This document shows, in pieces, positions 2,575 through 20,594 of a stretch of DNA of 64,000 nt; position 1 is the first letter of the stretch; each line of letters begins with the position of its first letter. Source of the stretch: Rhizobium sp. Q54 (lineage in GTDB: Bacteria > Pseudomonadota > Alphaproteobacteria > Rhizobiales > Aestuariivirgaceae). The DNA is taken from contig CAMDBX010000009.1 in NCBI GenBank assembly GCA_945889445.1, positions 1-64,000 of the forward strand. Reading direction: 5' to 3'. Both the position numbers and the translations under genes were made by a program. The notes beneath the pieces are model-generated. The model was not told the DNA's origin, ran no database searches, and saw only the letters and a program-made list of their open reading frames with translations.

Positions 2575-2940
2575 TTACTCTCCGCAGTTTGTGCCAACAG
2601 GGCAACCAGATGAATTGTCGTCTGGGTTGACATTGCCAGCATCGCTGCTGTCAGAGCCGTTACCATTCGAGTTGTCATCGTTGCCAGAGCCGTCGTTTCC
2701 GCTGTCGTCGCTACCCGAGCCATCACTTCCGTTGTCGTCGTTGCCCGAGCTGTCGTTTCCGCCGTCATGGTTCGAACCGCCATCTTGGGAGTCATGGCCA
2801 CCGCCATCGTTGCCGCCCGAGTCATTGTCTGAGCCACCGTCGCTGTCGGCATGAGCAGCCACGGGCAGGAACCCAGCACCTGCGGCATAGAGTGAAGCAG
2901 TGCTGAGGGCGAGGGTAAGGGCGAAGGTCTTGAAGTTCAT
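2575..2940 (-). CDS. exported Asp/Gly/Ser/Asn-rich low-complexity peptide A with C-terminal CxxGTNC
   Basis: A 121-residue protein. ATG 2940 is chosen because AGGAG lies 7 bases upstream. Residues 1-36 form a Sec-type signal peptide (MNFK start, hydrophobic core, AHA before DSDGG). Residues 37-105 are a repeat body of Asp, Gly, Ser and Asn, and the C-terminus reads CPVGTNC then GE (Cys 113 and 119). The same ending occurs in the peptides at 12818-13189 and 14725-15048. Upstream, CTGAC and CTGAA half-sites sit 11 bp apart as in those genes. It stands far from the putative modification genes. Family unnamed as far as I know; role inferred only as precursor or structural exported peptide. Confidence 0.75.
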   Translation of the reverse strand: MNFKTFALTLALSTASLYAAGAGFLPVAAHADSDGGSDNDSGGNDGGGHDSQDGGSNHDGGNDSSGNDDNGSDGSGSDDSGNDGSGNDDNSNGNGSDSSDAGNVNPDDNSSGCPVGTNCGE

Positions 2941-7503: not shown

Positions 7504-8616
7504 CTACTTCAGCTCCGCGCTCATGTCGGCGATCGGCTGATCCGAGTCGACGGGGAACGTCTTGATATCCTTGGCATCGAGGTCAAGCTGCTTCATGTCG
7601 ATCATGCGGATCGACTGATCCTTGTAGCTCCTGTAGTAGTAACGCAAATTGAACCCTTCGCGCGCGACTGTGAACTGCGAGTAATCGGCAGAGACGGTGC
7701 CGCTGGAGTCCATCCCACGGCCGATGCCCTTCGGGATGTCGAAGTTGTTGAGTACATGGAAGATATGGGGGATGCCCTCTTCGGCATTGTCCGAGGGAAT
7801 GGCATTGGCGCTGAACAGCGCGGCGCGCACGAAGCGCGACGGCGGGCTGAAGTCACCCGGGATGCTCCACATGCCGTTGCCGAGATCGAAGGCCTTCAGC
7901 TCGACCGGGCCGATCTTGCCGCTGTCGACGTTGTTGGGCTGCACCGTGATGTAGTTGCGGAGATTGGTCATCTGCCAGTCGAAGGTCGGCGAGTTCGTGA
8001 CCACGCCAAGCGGATTGTCGTGAACGACCAGCTTGCCGTCGATGGCCTCAATGACGATTGCAGCGCCCGTCGTGTCATAGACCGCATAGTGGAACGGTGG
8101 CGGCTCCTTGCCCCAGCCACTCAAGACGGTCGGGGTGATGACGACGTCGCCAGCTTCCACGGCCTGGCGCACCTCATCGACGGAGCCGAACTGCGTGAGG
8201 ATCCAGTTCGGGAACTCGGCGGAAGAGACGCCCTTGGCCTGGTTGTCCGCCGTGACGGGCGTGTATGTGGAAAACTGCGGGAGATAAAAGGCACCTGCCA
8301 TCATGCCGGCATCGTTGAGGCCATCCATGATCTTCACGTCGGTATAGGCATACATGCCAACGACTGCGTGCTTGGCGGTATACTTCATGCCGTCACCGGC
8401 GGGCGTCTGGCCGGTGAAGGTCTGGCCGCGGGGGATCAGGGCGACATAACCGTCGATCTCGATGCCGAACTCGACGGTACGTCCGCTGACGGTGGTGCCG
8501 TCCTTGTTCGTCAGGCGCAAGTCGGTGCAGGCCTGTGAAGGCGCCATCGAGGTTGCCAGGATGGTGGCCGAGGCGAGGACCATGCGACCGAGCTTGGAGA
8601 TGCAGGAAGACAACAC
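7504..8616 (-). CDS. secreted choloylglycine hydrolase/penicillin V acylase family enzyme
   Basis: A 370-residue Ntn-hydrolase. GTG 8616 is chosen (AAAGG 8 bases upstream) because it gives a signal peptide of 29 residues ending SQA, directly before Cys 30 in ACTDLRL: in this family the N-terminal cysteine exposed by processing is the nucleophile. Further family positions are GRTVEFGIE (Arg contact), the NDAGMM loop near residue 125, AAIVIEAIDG and TNSPTFDWQ (Asn and Trp region). It cleaves linear amides such as bile-salt or acyl-homoserine-lactone-type bonds; the substrate here is unknown. A degraded paralogue lies at 9893-10300. Confidence 0.85.
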   Translation of the reverse strand: MLSSCISKLGRMVLASATILATSMAPSQACTDLRLTNKDGTTVSGRTVEFGIEIDGYVALIPRGQTFTGQTPAGDGMKYTAKHAVVGMYAYTDVKIMDGLNDAGMMAGAFYLPQFSTYTPVTADNQAKGVSSAEFPNWILTQFGSVDEVRQAVEAGDVVITPTVLSGWGKEPPPFHYAVYDTTGAAIVIEAIDGKLVVHDNPLGVVTNSPTFDWQMTNLRNYITVQPNNVDSGKIGPVELKAFDLGNGMWSIPGDFSPPSRFVRAALFSANAIPSDNAEEGIPHIFHVLNNFDIPKGIGRGMDSSGTVSADYSQFTVAREGFNLRYYYRSYKDQSIRMIDMKQLDLDAKDIKTFPVDSDQPIADMSAELK

Positions 8617-9892: not shown

Positions 9893-10300
9893 ATGACACG
9901 TCATTTCATCAGGCGGGGCATGCTGGCTGCGCTGCCCAGCCTGTCGCTGGCAACAAATGGCCTTGCCTGCACGGTGCTCATGCTCAAGGATGCGCGTGGC
10001 AACAGGTATCAGGGCAGGACCAACGAATACCCTGGAATGCAAGCCGGATGAGCCGACCTACTATCCCGCTGGATCGACGATTGAATCTGTGACGCCCGAT
10101 GGCAAGGAGGGCCTGGCGTTCAACACCAGGCACGCCATTCTCGGGGTCACGCTGAAGGGAATGGTTCCCAACGCCCGGTAGGACGCGCTGCACGAGGGCG
10201 TGAATGACCAGTGCATGACCTTCACTGTCAACGCTTTCCTTTGCCCTTTACGACAGATCAGGCGGCGCCATCGTCATTGAATCAGCTTCGACAGGTTCAA
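9893..10300 (+). pseudogene. degraded choloylglycine hydrolase-type gene
   Basis: GGGAGG precedes ATG 9893. The frame begins with an intact-looking Tat-like or Sec signal (RHFIRRGMLAALPSL) and the catalytic start LACTVLMLKDARGNRYQGRT, then Asn-Glu-Tyr as in the family. It shifts frame near 10040, continues in a second frame (TIESVTPDGKEGLAFNTRHAILGV), meets a stop near 10180, and later shows SGGAIVIES, which corresponds to GAAIVIEA in the intact gene at 7504-8616, after a large deletion. The orientation is opposite to that of the intact paralogue. Confidence 0.75.
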
Positions 10301-10389: not shown

Positions 10390-10734
10390 TCACGCGCCGT
10401 CCTGCTGGTTCGGCGGCAGGTAATCGGTGGCGGTGTCATGGCTCATCAGCAGTGCCAGCTTGTATTCGGACGGGCTCAGCAGCTGTTCGCACTCGTGCTT
10501 GAGAAAGCCACCCGTGGCCAGCGCGTGGACCGAGTGCGCGGCGGCGTGAATGACATCCGGAAACGAAAAGATGCCCATGCCGTCATAGGCGCCCATGCGG
10601 TTGTACATGCTGACGATCGAGCCATGGAATGCCTCTGCCAGCCTCACCGAGGTCGCGTAGCGGTCGAGCGGCTTCTGCCTCATGGTCTCGAAGGATTGTG
10701 GATTGAACTTCCACTGAACCAGAAAATGCGGCAC
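10390..10734 (-). CDS. GYD-domain protein
   Basis: A 114-residue protein: MPHFLVQWKFNPQSFETM at the start, KPLDRYATSVRLAEAFHGSI, then the domain signature MGAYDGMGIFSFPD around residues 47-60 and a final helix region. This matches small GYD proteins, which are alpha/beta-barrel-like dimers of unknown function that often carry Y-D-G in the centre. No neighbour suggests a role. Start by family length; no strong ribosome binding site. Confidence 0.65.
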   Translation of the reverse strand: MPHFLVQWKFNPQSFETMRQKPLDRYATSVRLAEAFHGSIVSMYNRMGAYDGMGIFSFPDVIHAAAHSVHALATGGFLKHECEQLLSPSEYKLALLMSHDTATDYLPPNQQDGA

Positions 10735-11029
10735 CGGTCGTCTCCATGCCCATGAGCTTTGGTCGGGTAACCTTCGTCGCGGCCGTCAAGAATGGCTGCA
10801 CTGCGGGCGAGAGGGTTGCTGCGGGGTGCCCCGCGCCGCCTCGGGCAATTCAGTCAGTGCCTGTCATACCGTTCCGCACTGCGTCAGGAAAGAAACTTGT
10901 GTCACCGAATAAACGCGTAAAAGTTGCGATTTCAGGGCATGTACACGCAACATGCCCCACGACTTCGCCATGACCTCATGTTGGGCATCTTCGATATGCT
11001 GAACCGCGACTGACCTCGGCGGCTTGATG
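10735..11029. other. intergenic stretch without a supported gene
   Basis: Only a 24-codon plus-strand frame (10939-11013, ending IFDMLNRD) looks protein-like, and it has no ribosome binding site. It separates the eroded accessory region from the minus-strand peptide cluster. No terminator for the cluster is obvious. Confidence 0.35.
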
Positions 11030-11623
11030 CTAGCCGCGTGGCGTGGCCCTGCCGCTGCGTGAACGGACGAGCACGCGGTTCAGCTTCGGCAGTCCCCACA
11101 CCGCCAGCCCCGAGACGCCGAAGCTGATGAGGATGATCGAAAAGGCATCTGCCAGAAAACTGCCGAAGGGTGAGGCAACCAGACCGCGCTTGTGGAACTC
11201 GCTGAGGATGCGCCCCCAGTAGAACTTGCTGTCGAGTAGGCTGCCGTCTCCGGCATAAAGCGTGCGCCGATAGGGCGCGCGGACCACGTATTGCGCGCTG
11301 TTTTTGAAGACGACAAGCTCGCTGTCGTCCTTGAGCGCAATGAACCACGCTGGGTGCCCATAGTAGACACCGTCCTTCAGGCTCTTGCTGATGGGTGCAA
11401 AGGGCTGCTGGTGCAGCCAGTCCTTGGCTTGCTCGGCATCGCCGCGCAGGCCCGGCTGGTCGTCAACCAGTGCCTGTTCAATATGGTCGCGCGGGAACAG
11501 TGAGAGGATGAGGTCGCCATGGTTCATGTAGAGCCCGGTCAGGCCATAGATGATGACCCATGGAAACAGGATCAGCCCCATCCATCTGTGCAGGGCTCTG
11601 AGCTTTTGGGAAAGGGCAAGCAT
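11030..11623 (-). CDS. PepSY-type transmembrane protein
   Basis: A 197-residue membrane protein. N-terminal LRALHRWMGLILFPWVIIYGLTG is the typical first helix of PepSY-associated membrane proteins; a periplasmic region of about 110 residues follows (VYYGHPAWFIALKDDSELVVF), then a C-terminal helix AFSIILISFGVSGLAVWGLP and a basic tail RVLVRSRSGR. Its ATG overlaps the stop of the kinase/PqqD gene (TAATG), so the two are translationally coupled. PepSY domains are thought to interact with or inhibit exported proteins; here the partner could be the exported peptides. It is the last gene of the cluster. Confidence 0.7.
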   Translation of the reverse strand: MLALSQKLRALHRWMGLILFPWVIIYGLTGLYMNHGDLILSLFPRDHIEQALVDDQPGLRGDAEQAKDWLHQQPFAPISKSLKDGVYYGHPAWFIALKDDSELVVFKNSAQYVVRAPYRRTLYAGDGSLLDSKFYWGRILSEFHKRGLVASPFGSFLADAFSIILISFGVSGLAVWGLPKLNRVLVRSRSGRATPRG

Positions 11624-12780
11624 TAGGGTGACTCTGAATTGATCCGGAAGGACTGGGCGCGGGAAATGTCGATGAGGCCGGCCTCGGCGAACTGCCGCAG
11701 GCAGAGCGCAAGCTGTTTGGCGAGCTCGCGCCGGGGTGCGTCGGGGTAGATCGCGCAGAGCATGTCCCAGGCTGTCTCGTCGTCGTCGAATTTCTGCAGC
11801 ACGGTGAGCATGACGTGGGCGCTCTCGTTGATCTCGAAGACCCGCCCCGTCTCGTCGTCGGCGATGATGGCGCCACGGTCGGTCCGGGTGATGTGCAGGT
11901 CGTCGCGCTGGCTGCTCTCGTGCAGGGATCGCGGCGCGGCGGTGGCTGCGGACATCTCGCCGCGCAGCAGGAGGCGTGCGGCCTGTCCGGCATCGGCGAA
12001 GTGCAGGATGCTGCCGCGAAGGCTCTCGGCCAGCCGCGCCGCCATGCCGGCGATTGCCGAGGGCGCGTGGTGGCGTGACATGTTGTGCCAGAGAATGCGC
12101 GGGATGAGCGTCCCGTGCGAAGCCGGCTCCAGCAGCGGCAGCGCTTCCGCTGTGTCGGGGGCACGATTGAGCAGAACGATGTCGGTCAGGGGCCGCGCGC
12201 CCGCCGTCAGCGCCTCGGTCGTGAGGTAGGCATAGCGCTTGCCGCGCATGATGCTGCGCGCGTCGATCCAGTCTCGCATGGCGGGTCCCGCGCTTTTGAC
12301 GAAGCCCTGCCGCAGCCGCATCGGAATGCGCAGGCCGGCAATCGTCAGCGCCTGCGTGTCCACCAGCACCACGTCGTCAGCCAGGATGTCGGCGCCCAGC
12401 GCGGCAAGCTCGGCCACCAGGCTGCTCTTGCCACCGCCGAAGGGCGCGAGAACGAGGTAGCTGTTCCCGTTCATGCTGGCGCAGGCGCCATGAATGCAGA
12501 GCATGTTGGGGGGCACGGCCAGGCTCTTGCAGGCGGCCAGCCCCGCCATGATGGAGCCCGCAACCGCGTCCAGCCCCTCGACGCTGAAGGGGCTCAGATA
12601 GGCAGGGCCGGAAAGATGGAACTTTCCGGCCCTCGACTTTACGATGATCGATGCAGGCCCGGGTTCTGCGGCCTCCTCGGCGGGAACGCCGAACGAGGCG
12701 AGCGCAACGAACAGTTCCGGCGGACAATCGATGTCCGCCGGAACCGTGCAGCCCTCAAAGTCAAAGTGAACCCGGGCCAA
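11623..12780 (-). CDS. HPr-kinase-like ATPase fused to a PqqD domain
   Basis: A 385-residue protein. The start is TTG 12780: AAGGA lies 6 bases upstream and every upstream ATG in frame would overlap the peptide B gene. Residues 95-260 form an HprK-related fold: IHGACA, Walker A APFGGGKSS (112-120) and ADDVVLVD (134-141). Residues 295-372 form a PqqD-like domain (ITRTDRGAIIADDETGRVFEIN, then a C-terminal helical half). In known systems these are separate proteins (HprK-related kinase A and 'HPr-rel-A' PqqD chaperone), and PqqD domains bind RiPP leader peptides. It sits 37 bp downstream of peptide B. Kinase activity on the peptides is inference. Confidence 0.8.
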   Translation of the reverse strand: MARVHFDFEGCTVPADIDCPPELFVALASFGVPAEEAAEPGPASIIVKSRAGKFHLSGPAYLSPFSVEGLDAVAGSIMAGLAACKSLAVPPNMLCIHGACASMNGNSYLVLAPFGGGKSSLVAELAALGADILADDVVLVDTQALTIAGLRIPMRLRQGFVKSAGPAMRDWIDARSIMRGKRYAYLTTEALTAGARPLTDIVLLNRAPDTAEALPLLEPASHGTLIPRILWHNMSRHHAPSAIAGMAARLAESLRGSILHFADAGQAARLLLRGEMSAATAAPRSLHESSQRDDLHITRTDRGAIIADDETGRVFEINESAHVMLTVLQKFDDDETAWDMLCAIYPDAPRRELAKQLALCLRQFAEAGLIDISRAQSFRINSESP

Positions 12781-12817
12781 TTTAGTCCTTACTTTCGGCT
12801 CACGCCGACCATGCAGC

Positions 12818-13189
12818 TCAGCCCTTCGAGCAGTTGGTGCCGACTGAGCAGGAAGAGTCATCGGTGTCGTCGTCCGTCGAACCCGAGCTCGAACCGCCCG
12901 AGCTCGAGCCACTCGAGCTTGAACCGCCGGAGCTCGAACCACCCGAGCTTGAACCGCCGGAGCTTGAACCGCCGGAGCTCGAACCACCCGAGCTCGAACC
13001 GCTGGAGTCAGAACCACCCGAGCTGCCGCCGCCGTCGCTGCCGCCGGAGCTGCCGCCGCTGTTGTTGCCAGAAGCGCGGGCGCTGCTCACCTGCAGGATG
13101 GCAGGAGCAACGAAGGCGCCAACGGCGCCCAGGCCGAGAAGCGACAGCAGCTTGCGGCGGTCCTTGTTCATGTTCACGGTGTCGGTCAT
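12818..13189 (-). CDS. exported Ser/Gly-rich low-complexity peptide B with C-terminal CxxGTNC
   Basis: A 123-residue protein with a perfect AAGGAG 6 bases before ATG 13189. Residues 10-16 (DRRKLLS) and the hydrophobic stretch to ARA (about residue 38) make a twin-arginine-like signal. The body is near-pure Ser and Gly (GGSSSGGSSS repeats), then acidic DDDTDD, and the end reads CSVGTNC followed by SKG (Cys 114 and 120). The kinase/PqqD gene follows after 37 bp. Tat export would fit modification or folding in the cytoplasm before export. The repeat body offers dozens of serines; whether they are modified is unknown. Confidence 0.8.
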   Translation of the reverse strand: MTDTVNMNKDRRKLLSLLGLGAVGAFVAPAILQVSSARASGNNSGGSSGGSDGGGSSGGSDSSGSSSGGSSSGGSSSGGSSSGGSSSGGSSSSGSSSGGSSSGSTDDDTDDSSCSVGTNCSKG

Positions 13190-13253
13190 GTCGTTCTCCT
13201 TGTTTGCCGTCGTCCGGAACACGTCTTAATCCCAGATAACGATTGAACTTACC

Positions 13254-13291
13254 CTGACACAATGGCGTAGTCAGCCTGTCGCGAGGCTGAC
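13254..13291 (-). promoter_or_regulatory. 11-bp lattice of CTGAC/CTGTC half-sites upstream of peptide B
   Basis: CTGAC starts at 13254, CTGTC at 13276 and CTGAC at 13287; position 13265 is degenerate. All fall on one 11-bp lattice, 65 bp upstream of the start. A hairpin GTCAGCCT/AGGCTGAC (13270-13291) overlaps two of the sites. Confidence 0.55.
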
Positions 13292-13353
13292 AAAATCCGG
13301 AATGGCGCGGAATGCTGGGCAAGCAGTGGCTGTCCCGGTCCTTGCGGCCGGCG

Positions 13354-14547
13354 TCAGCGGTGCGGCGTGCCGCGGCGGCCCTCCGTCAGGGCATAGTTCA
13401 GGAAGTGGCGCACCTGGCCCAGCACCTCGGCGTTGGACAGCATGCCTTGCCCTTCCGGGCGGAAATCAGGGTGGGCGAGCGCCATGGCGTCCAGCGCCTC
13501 CCGGCCTGACGCGTAGCTGGCCAGTGCCAGGTCGCTGCACAGGAAGGAGGTGATCGAGGCGCTCCCCGACCATTGCGCCGGGTCGGCGTCCGATCCCGCC
13601 GGCTTGTGGAAGGGGATCTTGCCCGGCCCCGTGCCCACCTTGGCCTGGAAGCTCTTGTAGTCATCCGCCAGGCGCTGGCTCGCTGCAATGCCCACCTCCG
13701 CCGCGGAAATCGGGCGCGGGGCGCCGGGGCCGCCGGTCTCGCCCGCCTTGCGCGACAGGCGGTACATGATCTTGCCGATCATGTACTGCGACGGGTCTGG
13801 CTGCAGGAATACAACCTGTTTGATGTTGGCCAGCGTCATGATGCCGGAGCACTGCGCGCAGGATTCGAGCGAGGTGTAGATCGTCACGCTCGACAGCGAC
13901 TTGCCGTAGTCGTCGTCCATCTGGCCCCGCATCGGCGCCTTCTCGCCCGCCGGTGAGAGGTTCCAGCGGTCATCCGTTCCCAGCGCGCTGTCCCAGTCCT
14001 GGTGGATGTCGGCGAGGCTGAAGATGCGCTTGATCAGCCGCGCCTCGGCATGTTCCACCGAGCTGTTGAAGATCGAGTTGTGATTGAAGTCGAAGTCGAT
14101 GATGTCACCGTCGCCATCGACCGCGATGCAGCAGATGTTGTGGCCAAGGTATCGCCCGCCCGCATAGAGTGACTGCGTCCCGGTGCCGGCAATGCGCTGT
14201 GATGGCTGCCACGGATATTCGCCGGTTTCGCCATCCTTGTTGCCGTTGAAATAGCCATGCAGCAGCGCGAGCACGAGATTGGCATAGACGCGGTGCCGTT
14301 CCATCTCGGCGGGCGTTGCGTTGTAGGGGCCGATGTCGACGAGCTCGGACAGCGGCTTGTTCCAGTAATGCGCCATCGCATCGTCGGCGCTCAGGCCCTC
14401 GGGCGGCAGGCTCTCGGCTTGGGCCTCGGCTGCCGGCAGGCCCGCGGCGGCCGCGGCCGCCAGCGAACCACCCATCATCGAGGTCACGAAATTGCGGCGG
14501 TTCTGCTTGGCCTGGTCTGTCATCTCGCACCCGTCTGACGTGAACAT
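13354..14547 (-). CDS. Tat-exported protein with cytidine-deaminase-like zinc motifs
   Basis: A 397-residue protein (start 14547; ATG 14523 eight codons later is equally possible). Residues 16-43 form a Tat signal (QNRRNFVTS, Ala-rich core). The body carries H-A-E (166-168) and a distant S-C-A-Q-C (229-233), the zinc ligands and catalytic Glu of the deaminase fold, except that the usual PCxxC has Ser for Pro. The spacing between motifs, about 60 residues, is longer than in nucleoside deaminases. It lies between peptides C and B on the same strand. A periplasmic location is odd for nucleotide deamination, so another substrate, perhaps the peptides, is possible. Function not established. Confidence 0.65.
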   Translation of the reverse strand: MFTSDGCEMTDQAKQNRRNFVTSMMGGSLAAAAAAGLPAAEAQAESLPPEGLSADDAMAHYWNKPLSELVDIGPYNATPAEMERHRVYANLVLALLHGYFNGNKDGETGEYPWQPSQRIAGTGTQSLYAGGRYLGHNICCIAVDGDGDIIDFDFNHNSIFNSSVEHAEARLIKRIFSLADIHQDWDSALGTDDRWNLSPAGEKAPMRGQMDDDYGKSLSSVTIYTSLESCAQCSGIMTLANIKQVVFLQPDPSQYMIGKIMYRLSRKAGETGGPGAPRPISAAEVGIAASQRLADDYKSFQAKVGTGPGKIPFHKPAGSDADPAQWSGSASITSFLCSDLALASYASGREALDAMALAHPDFRPEGQGMLSNAEVLGQVRHFLNYALTEGRRGTPHR

Positions 14548-14666
14548 GCTCCCGTCCCGGCGGGTGGGGCACAGGGTCCTTACTCGTTCATCGTGGCGGG
14601 GCAGGGCAATCCGTGATTCTGCCTAGCAGTGGCGGGCATGCCGCGCCGCACCTTCCGGAACCAACG

Positions 14667-14696
14667 AAAATCGGCGGGGCTTGGGGGCCCCGCCGA
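14667..14696 (-). terminator. intrinsic terminator after peptide C
   Basis: TCGGCGGGGC (14671-14680) pairs perfectly with GCCCCGCCGA (14687-14696). On the minus strand the stem is followed directly by TTTTCG. It sits 28 bases after the stop codon of peptide C and 120 bases before the deaminase-like gene, so most transcripts from the peptide C promoter should end here. Confidence 0.8.
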
Positions 14697-14724
14697 AGCA
14701 GCCGATGCGGAAGTGGCTAGGGGC

Positions 14725-15048
14725 TCAGCCCTTCGAGCAGTTGGTGCCGGCTGCGCAGGCCCGGCCGCCGCGGTTGCGGGTGGAGGCGCCGGGGTTGTCA
14801 TCTACCGAGTCGTCGCCGGCGTTGTCGTCGCTGCCGTCGTCGTCGCTGCCGTCGTCGTCGCTGCCGTTGTCGTCGCTGCCGTTGTCGTCGCTACCGTTGT
14901 CGTCGCTGCCGCTGTCGTCGTTGCCGCCGCCATCATGGCTGCTGCCCTTGTCGGCGAAGGCGGGGCCCACGTAGCCGGCCGCCGTGGTGGCGAACAGCAC
15001 GAGCGTGCAGAGGGCGATGGTGGACAGAAGCTTGCGGCGATCGATCAT
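14725..15048 (-). CDS. exported Asp/Gly/Ser/Asn-rich low-complexity peptide C with C-terminal CxxGTNC
   Basis: A 107-residue protein with AGGAG 6 bases before ATG 15048. The signal MIDRRKLLSTIALCTLVLF (twin arginine at 4-5) ends around PAFA (residue 32). The body repeats D-D-N-G-S units (GSDDNGSDDNGSDD), and the end reads CAAGTNC then SKG (Cys 98 and 104). The signal closely resembles that of peptide B (DRRKLLS) while the body resembles peptide A, so it links the three. Four half-sites on an 11-bp lattice lie upstream and a strong terminator follows. Confidence 0.8.
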   Translation of the reverse strand: MIDRRKLLSTIALCTLVLFATTAAGYVGPAFADKGSSHDGGGNDDSGSDDNGSDDNGSDDNGSDDDGSDDDGSDDNAGDDSVDDNPGASTRNRGGRACAAGTNCSKG

Positions 15049-15127
15049 GATATTCTCCTGGTTGTCGTTGTCCGGAGCCTCATGGCGCCGTGTCACTGGA
15101 TGACGCATGCACACTTGCGCATCTGGC

Positions 15128-15165
15128 CTGTCGCAACACTGACGCTATCCTGACGGCAAGCTGAC
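15128..15165 (-). promoter_or_regulatory. four half-sites on an 11-bp lattice upstream of peptide C
   Basis: CTGTC at 15128 and CTGAC at 15139, 15150 and 15161 are spaced exactly 11 bp. On the coding strand this reads as four G(T/A)CAG repeats. The layout matches tandem OmpR/PhoB-family sites (one helical turn), about 80 bp before the start codon. The half-site differs from the classical Pho box (GTCAT) by its final base. Confidence 0.65.
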
Positions 15166-15222
15166 AGGCGCGCAGTGCCGCCACGCGGGAGAGACATGAA
15201 AATCCGGTCGATTGCGTGCGCC

Positions 15223-16335
15223 TCAGCGCTGGGCGGGGTCGAAGGCCTTGAAGTGCTTCGACAGCTTCAGGCCCTGCTTCTGGTAGTTGGAGCCGATGCC
15301 CTGGCCATAGACGCGCTCGGGCGCTTCGGTGAGCGGTTCATAGACCAGCCGCCCGATGATCTGCCCGTCCTCGAGAATGAACGGCACCTCGTGGCTCCGC
15401 ACTTCCAGCACGGCGCGCGCACCCTCTCCGTGTCCTGACAAATGCCCGAAGCCGGGGTCGAAGAAGCCGGCGTAATGAACGCGGAACTCGCCCACCAGCG
15501 GGTTGAACGGCACCATCTCGGCGGCAAAGGCCGGCGGCACGCGCACCGCTTCCTTGGAGGCGAGGATGTAGAACTGGTCGGGGTCCAGCACCAGCGAGCC
15601 GCGCTGCCAGATCGGTTCCCAGAAATCGTGAACCGCAAGCGCGCCCTTGGCGTCCACGTCGACGAGCCCCGCATGGCGCTTGGCGCGGAAGCCCACCGGG
15701 CCATCCGCTCCAAGCGTCGAGAGGTCGACGGAAAGTGCCAGCCCGTTGTCGATGTTCACTTCGCCCGACGAGATCAGACCTTCCTTGTCATGCAACGCGC
15801 GGATCAGCGCGTCGGTGGCAAGCGTTGCCCCCTGGCGGAAGCGGATCTGCGACAGGCGCGAGCCCTCGCGCACCAGGATGGGGAAGGTGCGCGGCGAGAT
15901 CTCGGCATAGAGCGGGCCCTCATAGGCCTCCGGCACCTTGTCGAACTCCTGCGCATGATCGGTGATGACGCGGGTGAAGATGTCCAGCCGCCCGGTGGAG
16001 CTCTTGGGATTGGCCGCAGCCGCCACGCCCTTCGGCAGCTTCAGGCTTTCCTGGAGCGGCACGATATAGACGCAACCCGTCTCCAGCACCGCGCCATCGG
16101 TCAGCGGCATGCGGTGCAGCGCCAGTTCCTTCACCCGGGCTTCCACGGTGGACCGTGGACCTGGCAGGAAGGAGGCGCGCACCCGATAGGCCCACGGCCC
16201 CAGCCGCAGGTCAAGGCTGGCCGGCTGGATCTGGTCGGCATCCACCGGCCGGGCAAGCCGGATCAGCCCTTCCTCGCAATAGCGGGCAATGGCGCGGGCG
16301 GGCAGGATGCCGCGGGGCTCGAGCGTGGTTCCCAT
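15223..16335 (-). CDS. dcd: dCTP deaminase, long form
   Basis: A 370-residue 2'-deoxycytidine 5'-triphosphate deaminase of the long alphaproteobacterial type (about twice the length of the E. coli enzyme, with two related dUTPase-fold halves). Family positions are QPASLDLRLG near residue 40, ANPKSSTGRLDIF near 113 (the S-S-x-G-R catalytic loop), and NPLVGEFRVHYAGFFDPGFG near 275. It makes dUTP from dCTP for thymidylate synthesis. Start 16335 gives MGTTLEPRG with GGAGG immediately upstream; a longer reading from 16398 adds unlikely sequence. Divergent from apaG. Confidence 0.88.
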   Translation of the reverse strand: MGTTLEPRGILPARAIARYCEEGLIRLARPVDADQIQPASLDLRLGPWAYRVRASFLPGPRSTVEARVKELALHRMPLTDGAVLETGCVYIVPLQESLKLPKGVAAAANPKSSTGRLDIFTRVITDHAQEFDKVPEAYEGPLYAEISPRTFPILVREGSRLSQIRFRQGATLATDALIRALHDKEGLISSGEVNIDNGLALSVDLSTLGADGPVGFRAKRHAGLVDVDAKGALAVHDFWEPIWQRGSLVLDPDQFYILASKEAVRVPPAFAAEMVPFNPLVGEFRVHYAGFFDPGFGHLSGHGEGARAVLEVRSHEVPFILEDGQIIGRLVYEPLTEAPERVYGQGIGSNYQKQGLKLSKHFKAFDPAQR

Positions 16336-16414
16336 GCCTCCACATGGCGGAAATGATGCGGGCTTGGCAAGTGTTCGCTGTGGAAAACCCCGCAACATGG
16401 GCTAAACTGCCGCC

Positions 16415-16807
16415 ATGTATGAGCGCATCACCCAGGGCGTGAAGGTCATTGTCCACCCGAAATACCTCGACGGCCAGTCCAAGCCGGAGGAGAGCCATTT
16501 CGTCTGGGCCTATGCCATCACCATCGAGAACCACAGTCGCGAAGCGGTTACGCTGCGCACCCGCTACTGGAAGATCACCGATGCGTCGGGCCACGTGCAG
16601 GAGGTTCGCGGCGCGGGTGTGGTGGGCGAACAGCCGGTGATCAAGCCGGGTGACAGCTACAGCTACACGTCCGGCTGCCCCCTGAAAACCTCATCGGGCT
16701 TCATGGTCGGCGCCTACCAGATGCAGCTCGCCTCCGGCGAATTGATCAACGTCGAGATTCCGCCCTTCTCGCTCGACAGCCCGCACGAGAAACACGCCAT
16801 CAACTGA
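16415..16807 (+). CDS. apaG: ApaG protein
   Basis: A 130-residue ApaG: VKVIVHPKYLDGQSKPEESHFVWAY at the start, ITIENHS and the signature GVVGEQPVIKPGDSYSYTSGCPL, SSGFMVGAYQM. The fold is a fibronectin-III-like sandwich; E. coli ApaG is linked to Co2+/Mg2+ efflux, though the molecular role is unclear. It is followed by argE after 7 bases, so the two are probably co-transcribed. Confidence 0.95.
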   Translation: MYERITQGVKVIVHPKYLDGQSKPEESHFVWAYAITIENHSREAVTLRTRYWKITDASGHVQEVRGAGVVGEQPVIKPGDSYSYTSGCPLKTSSGFMVGAYQMQLASGELINVEIPPFSLDSPHEKHAIN

Positions 16808-16814
16808 AGTGACC

Positions 16815-17972
16815 ATGACAGGCAAAACCTATTCCACCGAGGAGATGCTGGCCCGCCTCATCGCCTTCGACACGACAAGCCGTGACGGCAACATTCCCTT
16901 GATCGAATTCGTCGAGGACTATCTCGACGGCTGGGGCGTGCCGCATTTCCGCGTCGACTATGAGGCGAACCGCAAGACCAACCTCTTCGCCACCATCGGC
17001 CCCGCCATTGCCGGCGGCATCGTGCTGTCGGGTCACACCGACGTGGTGCCGGTCGATGGCCAGCCCTGGACGTCGAACCCCTTCGAACTGACGGCGCGTG
17101 ACGACAGGCTCTTCGGCCGCGGCACCTGTGACATGAAGGGCTTTCTTGCCGTCTGCCTGGCGGAAGTGCCCAACTTCCTCAAGGCCAACTTGAAGTCGCC
17201 CATCCATCTGGCGCTGTCCTGCGACGAGGAAGTGGGCTGCAAGGGTGTCCGCCCGCTCGTTGCCCACATGCGTGACAATCTGCCCAAGCCGCGCGCCGTC
17301 ATCGTCGGCGAGCCCACCTCCATGAAGGTGGTCAACGCCCACAAGTCCGCCGTCACCTTCTCCACCGAAGTGACGGGCCTCGAGGCGCACTCCAGCCTCA
17401 CCCACCATGGCGTCAACGCCATCATGGTGGCGGGCGAGTTGTTGTCCGAGATGGGCCGCATCCGCGAGCACCTGATCGCGCTGGGCGATCCCACCCACCG
17501 CTTCGACCCGCCCTATTCGACCATCCATGTGGGCGTGATCGGCGGCGGCACCGCCAAGAACATCATTCCGCGCAAGTGTTCCTTCCAGTGGGAGACGAGA
17601 CTCCTTCCCACCGCCGACCCCGATTACGTTCCGCACCGCTTCGACACCTTCTCCCGCAAGCTGGAACCCGCGATGAAGGCACTGGCCCCGGAAACGGGGA
17701 TTGCCACCGAGGCGGTCAACAGCGTTCCCGGCCTTGCCCCGGAGAAGGATTCCCCGGCGGAGAATCTGGCCCTCCACCTGGCGGGCGCCAATTCCACCCA
17801 TGCGGTGAGCTACTGCACCGAGGCCGGCCTCTTCCAGCAGATCGGAATCCCGGCCGTCATCTGCGGCCCCGGCTCCATCGAGCAGGCCCACAAGCCGGAC
17901 GAGTGGATCGAAACGTCTGAACTCCGGAAGTGCGAGGCCTTCATGGGCAAGCTGGTCGCCCAGCTGTCCTAG
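16815..17972 (+). CDS. argE: acetylornithine deacetylase
   Basis: A 385-residue M20-family metallopeptidase. Visible landmarks: LSGHTDVVPVDGQPW (metal-binding His and the Asp two residues on), LFGRGTCDMKGF (bridging Asp), CDEEVGC (catalytic Glu pair), GEPTSMKVVNAHKS, and the C-terminal His in CGPGSIEQAHKPDEWI. It removes acetate from N-acetylornithine to give ornithine, feeding argF. A GTG at 16809 is an alternative start. argD and argF lie 17 kb away in a separate operon. Confidence 0.92.
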   Translation: MTGKTYSTEEMLARLIAFDTTSRDGNIPLIEFVEDYLDGWGVPHFRVDYEANRKTNLFATIGPAIAGGIVLSGHTDVVPVDGQPWTSNPFELTARDDRLFGRGTCDMKGFLAVCLAEVPNFLKANLKSPIHLALSCDEEVGCKGVRPLVAHMRDNLPKPRAVIVGEPTSMKVVNAHKSAVTFSTEVTGLEAHSSLTHHGVNAIMVAGELLSEMGRIREHLIALGDPTHRFDPPYSTIHVGVIGGGTAKNIIPRKCSFQWETRLLPTADPDYVPHRFDTFSRKLEPAMKALAPETGIATEAVNSVPGLAPEKDSPAENLALHLAGANSTHAVSYCTEAGLFQQIGIPAVICGPGSIEQAHKPDEWIETSELRKCEAFMGKLVAQLS

Positions 17973-18090
17973 AAGCTTTCCGAGTACCCATCCGACCAGC
18001 CATGTGAGGAACATCACCATGGCCGGGAATGTAGCATTCTAGGAATAAAAAGTCAAGGATAAAATTCCTCAACCGATTGCATGACCGCCC

Positions 18091-18579
18091 TCATCTTGGC
18101 CGGGTCACCATCGCGCCAATCGCCAGCCCCAGCCCGAAGCTCGAATGGTGCACCAGCGTGCGCCCGATGATCAGCCAGGGCGTTGCCGTGGCGCTCGCCA
18201 GCACGCCCATCCCCATCAGCGGCATCTGCACCAGGAAGGGAAACGCCATGGTCACCCAGCCGAACAGCAGCCCGTTCCAGAGCGAAGGCTCCCGCTTCGT
18301 CGCCTTCAACAGCAGAAGGTACACGCCCGCGAAGATCACCGAGATCGTGTAATAGGCCGCATGCCCGGCAATCAGCTCATGGGGCAGCGCCGGCGCCGCG
18401 CCCACATTGGCCACATAGGGCTGGCCCTGCAGCACCATCAGGAACCACCGCCCGGTGACGCTCCAGTTCACCGCCGGAAATCCGGTCAGCGCCTGGTAAA
18501 TGGTCCGCCCGATATCCGCCGCCGTCGCCGCGGCAAGCCCGGTGATCAGAATGCGCAGAAGCAGGGGGAGGCGGTTCAC
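18091..18579 (-). CDS. DUF2938-like integral membrane protein
   Basis: A 162-residue protein with four hydrophobic segments (roughly residues 6-25, 72-92, 100-120 and 130-155), consistent with the DUF2938 family by length and the GHAAYYTISVIFAGVYLL and HHSSFGLGLAIGAM stretches. Its ATG overlaps the stop of the CocE-type hydrolase by four bases, so it is the second gene of that transcript. Function unknown. Confidence 0.65.
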   Translation of the reverse strand: MNRLPLLLRILITGLAAATAADIGRTIYQALTGFPAVNWSVTGRWFLMVLQGQPYVANVGAAPALPHELIAGHAAYYTISVIFAGVYLLLLKATKREPSLWNGLLFGWVTMAFPFLVQMPLMGMGVLASATATPWLIIGRTLVHHSSFGLGLAIGAMVTRPR

Positions 18580-20594
18580 TGCAGCAACCTCGGGATTTCC
18601 TCGTTGAATTCCCGCTCGAACACCAGCTCCTCGCCCTCATAGGCTTCGATCTTGCCCCACACGACCCAGTGCCGCGCGGTCGACGTCAGCCGCCCGTAGG
18701 TTTCGGTGCGAATGTTCCAGTCGCCGCGGCGGCGCGTTTCCGTCCAGTGGGTTTCCATTTTCGCCGAGAGCGGGTCGTCCGGCATGATCGAGTACTTCTC
18801 GCGCCCCGCGCCGCCGATCACCAGCCCGTGCGGGTGCAGCTCCTGTTCGCCGAAGTCGTCGACGATCTCGATCTTGAGTTCGCCGGTCTCGGGGTCGGTC
18901 ACCGTCTCGCGCTTGTTCCAGGCGGGCGTGATCTCCGTCTGGTCCACCGGTGCTGCCGCCTCGGCCTCCGGCCATGTGACGGGCGATTCGCCTGCCACGT
19001 CCTTGCGGAGCGGCAGGTGCAGCTGCGACTTGCCCGCATAGACCGTCACCGTGGCGGCCTCGGGTGCCGGCCACATGATCGGGAAGTAGGAGGTGGAAAT
19101 CGCCACGCGCAGCTTGTGGCCTTTCGGCACCCGCCAGGCGATGTCGTCGAGCTTGATCTTCATGCGATAGTGCTTGCCCGGTTCCAGCGGCATCGGGTTC
19201 TCGCGGCTGTCCCTCATGCACAGGTTCTGCAGGTGATAGGTGATGCGCGAAACCTCGCCCGTGGGCCACACGTCGTTGAGCCTGACCGCGATATGCGCCA
19301 CCGGCTTGTCCACCGAGAACTCGAGGTCGAGGGCCGGCGGGCCCACGATGTCGATGTCGGTCACCAGCGCCGGCGTCTCGAAGGTGATCGATTGGGCATC
19401 GTCCTTCGCCTGGTCGCCCGGGAATTCGGGGCCAAGCCAGATGATGCAGTATTCGCCGCCGTCAGCGCCCGTGGTCTGCTTCGAGCAGATGGAGAGTGGC
19501 GTCTCCTTGCCCGCCGTGGGCCCGATGCCGCCGGCGTTGAGCCACCACTTCTTCACCTCCACATGGCCGAAGCCCCAGAAGCTGTCGCCGATCCAGCGGC
19601 CCTCGATCTTCGTCGGGAAGGAACCGGGCTTCCACGGCTCCATCACGTAATAGCGATAGTCCGGGTCGCGTGAGATGTGGGTGGCCGATCCCTTCAGCCA
19701 CTGGTCCCACCAGCGCAAGGCTTCCTGCAGGAAGCCGATGCGCGGTTCCGGCACGGCAAAGTGCGGGTACTTGTGCGCCCATGGCCCGATGATGGCCTTC
19801 CTGGTGGTGCGCATCCCCTTCATCAGGCGCGGCACCGCGTTGGAATAGGCGTCGTTCCAGCCGCCCACCACCAGCGTGGGAGCCTCGATCTTGGCGTAGT
19901 CCTCGCACACCGAGCCGTGCTTCCAGTAATCGTCGCGGTGCGGGTGGCTGAGCCAGGGAATGACGAGGAAGGGCTCGTTCTCCAAACGCTCCATCCACAT
20001 CTCGCGCCAGCGCTCGCCCACGATCAGGGGGTCCGGCGGGCGTGAGGAATAGGCCAGCATGGTGGCGGCCCAGCCCAGCATCTCGTTGATCACCGTGCCG
20101 CCCTTGTAGTGGACGTCATCCTCATAGCGGTCATCGGTCGAACAGATGGTGACGATGGCCTTCAGCGCAGGGGGCTTCCTGGCCGCCACCTGCAGCGCGT
20201 TGAAGCCGCCCCAGGAAATGCCGAACATGCCGACCTTGCCGTTGCACCAGGGCTGGGTGGCCAGCCAGGCGATCACCTCCAGCGCGTCGTCCTGCTCCTG
20301 TTGCGCATATTCGTCGAACATCAGCCCTTCCGAGTCGCCGTTGCCGCGCATGTCGACGCGGATCGCGGCATAGCCGTGGCCTGCGAAGTAAGGGTGGGTC
20401 AGGGCATCGCGCACATGCGTGCCGTCGCGCTTCCTGTAGGGAAGATACTCGAGCAGGACGGGAACCGGGTTTTCCTCGGCATCCACCGGAAGCCACATGC
20501 GCGCGGCCAGCTTCGTGCCGTCGGAAAGCGGGATCCACAGGTTCTCGATTTCCTTCACGGACGAGGGAAAGTCGGTCTTGGTGGTGATGGTCAT
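18576..20594 (-). CDS. CocE/NonD family hydrolase
   Basis: A 672-residue serine hydrolase of the X-Pro dipeptidyl-peptidase S15/CocE class. The nucleophile elbow is GISWGGFNALQ, preceded by VDMRGNGDSEG (oxyanion and acid region), YLPYRKRDGTH near the N-terminus, and a GPWAHKYPH motif carrying the catalytic histidine. The C-terminal part forms the jelly-roll domain of the family. No signal peptide, so cytoplasmic. Start ATG 20594 directly follows the stop of the upstream HSL-type esterase. Substrates of such proteins are amides or esters of acylated compounds; none is indicated here. Confidence 0.85.
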   Translation of the reverse strand: MTITTKTDFPSSVKEIENLWIPLSDGTKLAARMWLPVDAEENPVPVLLEYLPYRKRDGTHVRDALTHPYFAGHGYAAIRVDMRGNGDSEGLMFDEYAQQEQDDALEVIAWLATQPWCNGKVGMFGISWGGFNALQVAARKPPALKAIVTICSTDDRYEDDVHYKGGTVINEMLGWAATMLAYSSRPPDPLIVGERWREMWMERLENEPFLVIPWLSHPHRDDYWKHGSVCEDYAKIEAPTLVVGGWNDAYSNAVPRLMKGMRTTRKAIIGPWAHKYPHFAVPEPRIGFLQEALRWWDQWLKGSATHISRDPDYRYYVMEPWKPGSFPTKIEGRWIGDSFWGFGHVEVKKWWLNAGGIGPTAGKETPLSICSKQTTGADGGEYCIIWLGPEFPGDQAKDDAQSITFETPALVTDIDIVGPPALDLEFSVDKPVAHIAVRLNDVWPTGEVSRITYHLQNLCMRDSRENPMPLEPGKHYRMKIKLDDIAWRVPKGHKLRVAISTSYFPIMWPAPEAATVTVYAGKSQLHLPLRKDVAGESPVTWPEAEAAAPVDQTEITPAWNKRETVTDPETGELKIEIVDDFGEQELHPHGLVIGGAGREKYSIMPDDPLSAKMETHWTETRRRGDWNIRTETYGRLTSTARHWVVWGKIEAYEGEELVFEREFNEEIPRLLQ

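What the first reader, a model, noticed from the sequence alone, without database searches (positions are those of the whole stretch)
11030..15048. Candidate undescribed peptide system: two exported low-complexity peptides with an HprK-PqqD fusion, a Tat deaminase-fold protein and a PepSY protein
Five minus-strand genes lie in order: peptide C, deaminase-like, peptide B, kinase/PqqD, PepSY. PqqD domains are known RiPP leader binders, and HprK-related kinases with PqqD partners are recorded as an uncharacterised peptide system. Here both are one protein, directly behind a peptide whose body is almost only Ser and Gly. That the peptides are substrates is inference from position and domain type.
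Basis: partly seen in the sequence, partly recalled or inferred. Interest (0 to 1): 0.88.

Follow-up and report, generated by a model that had tools for sequence, protein, structure and literature searches.

The report
Kinase-tagged peptides exported by Tat
Many proteobacteria pair a small, serine-rich, exported peptide with a kinase whose attached docking domain appears to grip the peptide's own export signal, which suggests that the peptide is phosphorylated before it leaves the cell; the window holds a divergent example.

Summary
The five minus-strand genes are real and where stated; as one system they hold only in part. The core is peptide B, the HprK-PqqD fusion and the PepSY protein. Peptide C belongs to an older locus shared with same-genus genomes without the kinase. 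The deaminase-like gene is not conserved. The CxxGTNC end is not the hallmark (1 of 31 kinase-linked peptides).

The hallmark is the leader. In 30 of 33 loci found with the fusion, a gene 5' of the kinase encodes a twin-arginine signal with Tyr-x-x-Pro, usually 15 residues after RR, then a mostly Ser-rich body (control 37 of 342). [Y/W]xxPx[L/V/I/F/A] is the docking motif of lasso and LPP leaders. The fusion's C-terminal domain is closest in the PDB to lasso/LPP docking domains and keeps the Asp that binds that Tyr in 30 of 31 (the window has Gln, and Phe in its leader). The kinase keeps the His, GKS and DD spacing of BsfK, a proven leader-guided Ser kinase.

Best reading: a new variant of phosphorylated RiPP whose Tat signal doubles as the leader. 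No modification has been shown, 13 of 29 class-wide kinase loci showed no such peptide nearby, and no published description was found in the searches made.

The parts
12818..13192 (-). Peptide B, the kinase-linked precursor (124 aa): leader residues 1-40, then a Ser/Gly body (48% Ser, 32% Gly) ending SCSVGTNCSKG
   Evidence: a small gene 5' of the kinase with such a leader in 30 of 33 homologous loci
13073..13192 (-). Leader of B with the Tat-type signal DRRKLLSLLGLGAVGAFVAPAILQVSSARA; FVAP (13103-13114) at the Tyr-x-x-Pro position
   Evidence: R12, R13, P30, A38, A40 invariant and Y27 nearly invariant in 31 peptides; RR-to-Y spacing 15 in 29 of 31
11623..12780 (-). HprK-type kinase fused to a C-terminal PqqD/RRE domain (385 aa, TTG start)
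   Evidence: H97, G117-K118-S119, D135, D136, R155, R157 invariant in 31 aligned fusions
11665..11895 (-). RRE (PqqD) domain of the fusion, residues 296-372
   Evidence: best PDB relatives of the family profile: TbiB1 3.3e-10, TfuB1, LppB, PbaB1, ahead of PqqD
11030..11623 (-). PepSY_TM membrane protein, start codon overlapping the kinase stop codon
   Evidence: PF03929 1.7e-9; homologues beside the cassette in L002 (38% id) and L059 (32% id)
13354..14523 (-). Tat-type deaminase-fold protein; probably an accessory or passenger gene, not a conserved part
   Evidence: PF00383 5.7e-6; 2 of 385 class genomes including its own
14725..15048 (-). Peptide C: resident genus peptide (Asp/Ser/Gly-rich, ...CAAGTNCSKG) next to Dcd; not part of the kinase cassette
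   Evidence: orthologues at the same place in L097, L098, L100 without the kinase
14671..14696 (-). Terminator-like hairpin (10 pairs, 9 G-C, TTTT) right after peptide C
   Evidence: 3 such sites in the region, 2.5 expected by chance; this one is the longest and lies at the gene end
2575..2940 (-). Peptide A: third CxxGTNC peptide (...SSGCPVGTNCGE), no RR, no YxxP; not shown to belong to the cassette

Best explanation
Peptide B and its counterparts are ribosomal precursor peptides whose Tat signal doubles as a RiPP leader. In the cytoplasm the RRE (PqqD) half of the fusion binds the Y/F-x-x-P-x-[L/V/I] stretch inside the signal. This holds the start of the Ser-rich body at the fused HprK-type kinase, which phosphorylates serine there (one Ser, possibly polyphosphorylated, as in LPP and lasso systems, or several). 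After release, the twin-arginine signal takes the peptide through Tat, signal peptidase cuts after AxA, and a PepSY protein (membrane-bound in the window; in Rhodobacteraceae a second Tat-YxxP protein, often with a two-component system) handles or senses it outside. Shown by sequence: the cassette, the shared leader motif and spacing, the RRE type, an intact kinase motif. Inferred: binding, phosphorylation, Tat export, the PepSY role.
For: Co-occurrence: leader peptide 5' of the kinase in 30 of 33 loci against 37 of 342 other ORFs (Fisher p 2e-22; the loci are related, so p is indicative). In the class-wide set 16 of 29 kinase loci (17 regex hits, one, L024, dropped by eye as noise), 12 of them with kinase and PqqD in separate frames. 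A second protein 3' of the kinase carries the same RR...YxxP leader in 11 of 11 loci looked at. Motif: RR 31/31, P 31/31, Y 30/31 plus F in the window, spacing 15 in 29/31. A small, loose control: 16 Tat-like starts in the loci, of which only B and C have [YFW]xxP. RRE type. The LppB residue D70 that binds the leader Tyr (PMC13381572, section 8 read) is D in 30/31 fusion RREs and Q in the window, whose leader has F. Kinase: H97-K118-D135D136 has the same spacing (21, 17) as H148-K169-D186D187 of BsfK, which with its RRE phosphorylates Ser3 behind a YxxPxL leader (PMC10368454, passages). Ser lies 17-20 residues after the Y/F in 29/31, falling to 15-18 of 30 at 49-60; LppA and BsfA are modified on Ser 18 and 19 positions after Tyr (my count from the papers' numbering). 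Ser 21.4% and Thr 5.2% of the bodies. Fusions and the other family members form one side of a branch (96/91).
Against: No phosphorylated product is known. The window kinase is divergent (16-25% identity to the other 30 fusions; end branch 2.05), its leader has F, its RRE lacks D70; the pairing F with Q is not strict (L014 has Q but Y). 13 of 29 class-set loci show no leader peptide within 1.5 kb 5' (12 without a hit, L024 noise), L039 has none, and the same-genus G030 (kinase at a contig start) yielded no peptide anywhere in that genome. The bodies vary so much (SGG, SKG, SRP, SAP) that no defined product follows; L065 has its first Ser only 27 residues after the Tyr. Ser is common all along the bodies, so its place near the leader is weak evidence. 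The 11% control rate shows that the motif search is permissive.
Confidence: 0.6

Rival explanations
1. Export chaperone. The fusion is a signal-binding proofreading factor, like the maturation chaperones of Tat redox enzymes (recalled), that masks the Tat signal; ATP turnover of the HprK half drives release, and the peptide is not modified.
For: The docking motif lies inside the signal's hydrophobic stretch; a Tat signal with overlapping transport and chaperone-binding functions is known (PMC3712460, title and start of abstract in the listings).
Against: Characterised HprK-like partners of RREs (BsfK, LppK) phosphorylate the peptide and the motif residues are all kept. Bodies are Ser-rich, not Thr-rich.
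Confidence: 0.15
2. Another modification: the HprK-type domain primes Ser for further chemistry (glycosylation, lipid or dehydration) or transfers a group other than phosphate.
For: Related paeninodin and LPP clusters also encode an NTP transferase (PMC13381572 sections 6-7); the fold also resembles PEP carboxykinase.
Against: Among the gene clusters shared by 3 or more loci I saw no nucleotidyltransferase, glycosyltransferase or lyase; those named by Pfam are a methyltransferase, phosphoribosyltransferase, ferrochelatase, rhodanese and aminotransferase shared by 4-7 mostly Rhodobacteraceae loci, which looks like common synteny. Rarer neighbours were not examined.
Confidence: 0.12
3. The five genes form one operon-like system, with C a second substrate and the deaminase a tailoring enzyme.
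For: Gene order; B and C share a tail and an operator-like TGTC-N8-GACAGG element upstream; the window's C happens to contain YVGPAF.
Against: C is resident in kinase-free relatives and a terminator-like hairpin follows it; the C leaders of those relatives lack the motif; the deaminase is nearly private to this genome.
Confidence: 0.08
4. The window copy is a decaying or repurposed cassette: the family works as above but this member no longer modifies B.
For: Long branch 2.05, F for Y, Q for D70, TTG start.
Against: All kinase motif residues and the reading frame are intact; F and Q occur together here; the RRE of W-reading PbaB1 also has Q at that place (Q79).
Confidence: 0.05

Closest known systems
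Linear polyphosphorylated peptides, LPP (LppA/K/B/S/D/N, Bacillota; PMC13381572: abstract and sections 6, 7, 8, 9 and 12 read, further passages searched)
   Same: HprK-like kinase, RRE of lasso B1 type, YxxPx[V/L] docking motif in the leader, linear Ser-containing core of variable sequence, no macrolactam synthetase
   Different: Here the RRE is fused to the kinase in the 31 aligned members, the leader is a Tat signal ending AxA, no SpI-like peptidase, MsbA-like exporter or NTP transferase was seen among recurrent neighbours, bodies are low-complexity, hosts are mostly proteobacteria
HPr-rel-A system (NCBIfam TIGR04352 HprK_rel_A and TIGR04353 PqqD_rel_X)
   Same: HprK-type kinase plus PqqD-like protein; 18 of 30 loci matched an RR...P search 5' of the kinase, about 16 of them convincing by eye, e.g. 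RRRKLLKGLAAGVPAIITLQSGAALA
   Different: Window scores 25.7 bits against the 200-bit cut-off; HPr-rel-A forms its own side of the tree (100/100); none of the 18 has [YFW]xxP in the matched stretch, and 1 of 6 PqqDs readable at the place has the Asp (10 of 30 loci detected); separate PqqD frames in the three loci printed
Phosphorylated lasso peptides (BsfA/K/B1, PMC10368454 passages; ThcoK named there; paeninodin PadeK recalled)
   Same: RRE-stimulated HprK-like Ser kinase, YxxPxL leader, same H-GKS-DD spacing
   Different: No lasso cyclase or B2 peptidase seen among the recurrent neighbours; Tat-type leader
SynChlorMet cassette (ScmC/ScmD, NCBIfam TIGR04249/TIGR04248)
   Same: 2 of 31 fusions match each model weakly
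   Different: Other parts of that cassette were not looked for

Membership tests
RRE-dependent RiPP | RRE domain of leader-binding type | tested here: met
   PqqD Pfam matches 31 of 31 fusions at E 0.01 or better; best PDB relatives TbiB1, TfuB1, LppB, PbaB1
RRE-dependent RiPP | precursor leader with docking motif [Y/W]xxPx[L/V/I/F/A] | tested here: met
   YxxP in 30 of 31 peptides, chosen by a search that asked for [YFW]xxP; the window's B has FVAPAI, so for the window alone inconclusive
RRE-dependent RiPP | core is enzymatically modified and the leader removed | not testable with these tools
   needs mass spectrometry
Linear polyphosphorylated peptides (LPP) | SpI-like peptidase, MsbA-like exporter, NTP transferase and discrete RRE beside the kinase | tested here: not met
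   RRE fused in the 31 aligned members; none of the others seen, by eye and ten Pfam look-ups of which eight were neighbours, among gene clusters shared by 3 or more of the 33 loci within 7 kb (ORFs of 90 aa or more; the one ABC ATPase cluster is MalK-like and in 3 loci)
Linear polyphosphorylated peptides (LPP) | leader consensus YxxPxVLxHQxIxFETxxS | tested here: not met
   YxxP shared, the HQxIxFET part absent
HPr-rel-A system | kinase over the TIGR04352 cut-off of 200 bits | tested here: not met
   window 25.7 bits; 31 of 31 fusions match at E 1e-3 or better, best 5.3e-15; separate in the tree
Lasso peptide | lasso cyclase and B2 leader peptidase in the cluster | tested here: not met
   none of the window's five ORFs; none seen among the recurrent neighbours of the 33 loci (by eye)
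HPr kinase/phosphatase (HprK/P) | Hpr_kinase_C over cut-off | tested here: not met
   14.5 bits, cut-off 33.3; resemblance in fold and motif only
Tat substrate | twin Arg, hydrophobic stretch, AxA | tested here: met
   RR and AxA invariant in 31 of 31; the search asked for RR/KR-like pairs; NCBIfam's own Tat model matches only 1 of 31
Tat substrate | export depends on TatC | not testable with these tools
   bench test

The most novel reading that the evidence does not exclude
A Tat export signal is also the RiPP leader: one protein both reads the signal through its RRE and phosphorylates the Ser-rich body, so that only modified peptide is let out. This would make a widespread class of exported phosphoserine-repeat peptides in proteobacteria, read outside by PepSY proteins and two-component systems, and would give the uncharacterised HPr-rel-A system the same kind of precursor.
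Probability: 0.35. Interest if true: 0.86.

Novelty: new variant of a known kind. Interest (0 to 1): 0.72.

Why it matters
RiPP leaders and export signals are usually separate things. Here one 30-residue stretch seems to be both, which would tie modification to export through a pathway that, as far as I recall, is not known to export any RiPP. It gives a concrete substrate, site region and binding code for a group of HprK-type kinases without known function, makes the HPr-rel-A system testable, and predicts extracytoplasmic phosphoserine repeats, whose role (cation or surface binding) would be new ground. Clean Y-type pairs in named strains make it a short bench test.

Tried and rejected
Rejected: (1) CxxGTNC as the system's signature (1 of 31 kinase-linked peptides; present in kinase-free genomes). 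(2) Peptide C as part of the cassette (synteny; hairpin). (3) Deaminase as a conserved part (no hit at E 1 in the other loci up to L069). (4) Ordinary HPr kinase (below cut-offs). (5) Membership in HPr-rel-A, LPP or lasso systems (see table). (6) Strict F/Q covariation: L014 breaks it. (7) Operator TGTC-N8-GACAGG: 10 hits with up to one mismatch against 4.05 expected, 3 of 100 shuffles as high, so only suggestive.

Led nowhere: alignment A3 too diverse for a collection scan; of the literature searches, 35 and 89 led to the LPP and Bsf papers, while 16, 45, 46, 90, 98 and 100 gave no description of the Tat-YxxP cassette (only the listed rows were seen, for example 25 of 701 papers and 12 of 237). 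No complex of fusion and leader could be modelled.

Rows left out: A6 holds 28 of the 33 loci plus window, L002 and L011; L056 and L062 were left out as partial and L045, L057, L068 were not captured by my script as one frame, so the 33 loci are relatives of the fusion, not 33 proven fusions. L008, L009, L010, L003 are the same loci as L040, L037, L044, L047 judging by contig coordinates and sequence, so the class-wide and collection counts overlap by these. Tree: 19 of 30 HPr-rel-A loci and 25 further class-set loci passed the length filter; the tool warns that the places of the window and of other long rows are unsure. In one search, of the 18 of 30 HPr-rel-A hits, L112 and L135 look doubtful by eye. 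The 16 control signals include a few that are hardly Tat signals.
Full report
Observation. The five genes are present, on the minus strand, in the order and at the coordinates given, with the domain assignments at the strengths listed above. The fusion is one continuous frame of 385 codons from a TTG 37 bases behind peptide B's stop, with TAAGGA in front; the PepSY start overlaps its stop. The model of the fusion is confident and resembles PEP carboxykinases and HprK/P. The B and C tails share 24 identical bases.

What belongs together. Homologues of the fusion were sought in 61 genomes, its own included (5 with a match; besides the window, L002 and L003 are HprK-PqqD fusions by reading), in 385 class genomes (66 with a match at 1e-6, of mixed kind) and in the named collection (33 loci, titles of Alpha-, Beta-, Gamma- and Deltaproteobacteria and Desulfobulbus). 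In 30 of the 33 a small gene 5' of the kinase (9 to 348 bases) encodes a twin-arginine leader with [YFW]xxP and a low-complexity, mostly Ser-rich body; the same test on 342 other large ORFs of these loci gives 37. The misses: L039 (none), L047 and L056 (kinase near a contig edge; L047 has such a peptide on the 3' side and L056 a Gly/Ser-rich frame 5'). In the class-wide set 16 of 29 loci have the peptide, including 12 where kinase and PqqD are in separate frames; 12 lack it within 1.5 kb and one regex hit (L024) was noise.

The leader. Aligned, 31 peptides including B share RR, a Pro, and AxA without exception and a Tyr in all but B, which has Phe (the search itself asked for a basic pair, [YFW]xxP and an Ala/Ser-rich end, so the sharpening to RR, Tyr and fixed spacing is the finding). 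The Tyr lies 15 residues after RR in 29 of 31. A second protein 3' of the kinase in 11 of 11 loci looked at carries the same RR...YxxP start. The published docking motif of lasso and LPP leaders is [Y/W]xxPx[L/V/I/F/A] (PMC13381572, section 8). The fusion's C-terminal domain is, by profile, closest to exactly those RREs (TbiB1 3.3e-10, TfuB1 1e-6, LppB 1.4e-5, PbaB1 6.5e-5) and far less to PqqD itself (0.28). LppB's D70, which bonds the leader Tyr, corresponds to an Asp in 30 of 31 fusions and in 19 of 20 further class-set loci for which the column could be read (some of these have no Tat-YxxP peptide nearby). The window has Gln there, as has PbaB1, which reads Trp. L014 has Gln with a Tyr leader, so this is a tendency, not a rule. 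In HPr-rel-A loci the leaders keep the Pro but not the aromatic residue, and 1 of 6 readable PqqDs has the Asp.

The kinase. H97, GKS 117-119, D135, D136, R155 and R157 are invariant in 31 fusions. BsfK's motif H148...K169...D186D187 has the same spacing; BsfK with the RRE BsfB1 phosphorylates Ser3 of BsfA behind a YxxPxL leader (PMC10368454, passages), and LppK does so on Ser3 of LppA (PMC13381572, section 7). Here a Ser lies 17-20 residues after the aromatic residue in 29 of 31; the share falls with distance to 15 of 30 at 57-60, as expected if the start of the body is the target, though Ser is common throughout.

PepSY and regulators. Nine loci share a homologous second protein 3' of the kinase; with L053 and L064 these are the 11. 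Pfam's PepSY passes its cut-off in two of the four kinase-linked ones tested (L055, L064; L074 just below, L059 not). Eight loci have a response-regulator homologue within 1.3 kb and ten a sensor-kinase homologue within 2 kb behind the kinase (one of each confirmed by Pfam). The window's PepSY_TM has relatives beside the cassette in L002 and L059. PepSY is thus a frequent but not universal partner.

What does not belong. Same-genus genomes G011, G018, G001 carry peptide C orthologues ending CxxGTNC in the same setting, without a kinase match. DNA alignment shows window 14662-19000, with Dcd and ApaG (Pfam), largely colinear with them, and the GYD gene at 10403-10755 matching L097, so that the stretch between (10756-14661) is the variable part. 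A hairpin with T-run follows C (not above chance as a class, but the longest and at the gene end). B's tail aligns at 86-91% with their C tails over 31-36 bases, so B probably took its CxxGTNC end from the resident gene; this is inference. The deaminase-like protein is nearly unique.

Placement. In a tree of 76 kinase domains, HPr-rel-A is its own side (100/100), fusions and the other class-set kinases are together (96/91), and the window pairs with L002 (99/99) on a long branch whose place the tool calls unsure. NCBIfam and Pfam give the peptides only weak partial hits: TIGR02811, a Tat-target model, in 5 of 31 (best 1.9e-5), others in one or two; ten and seven further peptides of both systems gave one weak hit each. 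RRE-Finder's paper holds the word kinase nowhere in its main text (passages); the LPP paper has no occurrence of 'Proteobacteria', 'Pseudomonadota' or 'signal peptide' at a word start. The listings of searches show no description of this cassette; subscription journals are largely absent from that library.

Host. The contig of L047 (4747 bases, Hyphomicrobiales MAG) matches G052:C388 in length, and G052 is listed as same order, so the window is probably from a Hyphomicrobiales genome (inference).

Verdict. The family is best described as a Tat-leader variant of phosphorylated RiPPs, and the window's member as a divergent one.

Noticed in passing
L110, L116-L124, L129, L131-L133, L136, L138 (HPr-rel-A loci, 5' of the kinase): A protein with a leader like ARRRKLLKGLAAGVPAIITLQSGAALA and a Cys-containing body lies 5' of HprK_rel_A: a candidate precursor for the uncharacterised HPr-rel-A system. 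The seven tested have no more than one weak hit in NCBIfam and Pfam.
   Followed up: partly
window 2575-2940, 14725-15048; L097, L098, L100, L101, L102, L103: A genus-wide family of exported Asp/Ser/Gly-rich peptides ending CxxGT[N/D]C, one group fixed beside Dcd/ApaG, independent of the kinase; role unknown.
   Followed up: partly
L105, L108 (same genus), L106 (own genome): Exported acidic Ser/Gly-rich proteins with a C-terminal PepSY-like domain (Pfam hit in L106 and L108; L105 by eye), found without a kinase search around them.
   Followed up: no
window 13275-13292 and 15127-15166, L098: Operator-like TGTC-N8-GACAGG elements upstream of peptides B and C and of a C orthologue, not in the stretches shown upstream of deaminase or kinase.
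   Followed up: partly
L048-L053, L055, L059-L061, L063, L064, L066, L067: 14 kinase-linked peptides, mostly of Rhodobacteraceae, hold two Cys, eight or so ending in a QC-x-x-DNG-like tail; a conserved end unlike the Cys-free peptides of other groups.
   Followed up: no
L139, L144 (G052): Two further Tat-YxxP-like peptide matches on other contigs of a genome that has the fusion: substrates may be scattered.
   Followed up: no
L022, L023, L025-L029, L031-L034, L036: Kinase loci of a second group that keep the Asp where it could be read but show no Tat-YxxP peptide within 1.5 kb 5'; by eye several lie next to a glycosyltransferase-like or RegA-like gene.
   Followed up: no
window 7504-8538 and about 9893-10181: An intact choloylglycine-hydrolase-like gene, and further along a frame that by eye resembles a fragment of a relative of it.
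   Followed up: no
window 13354-14523; L071/L072 (G271): A rare Tat-type deaminase-fold protein with HAE and CxxC stretches (signature recalled); one distant homologue in 384 other class genomes.
   Followed up: partly
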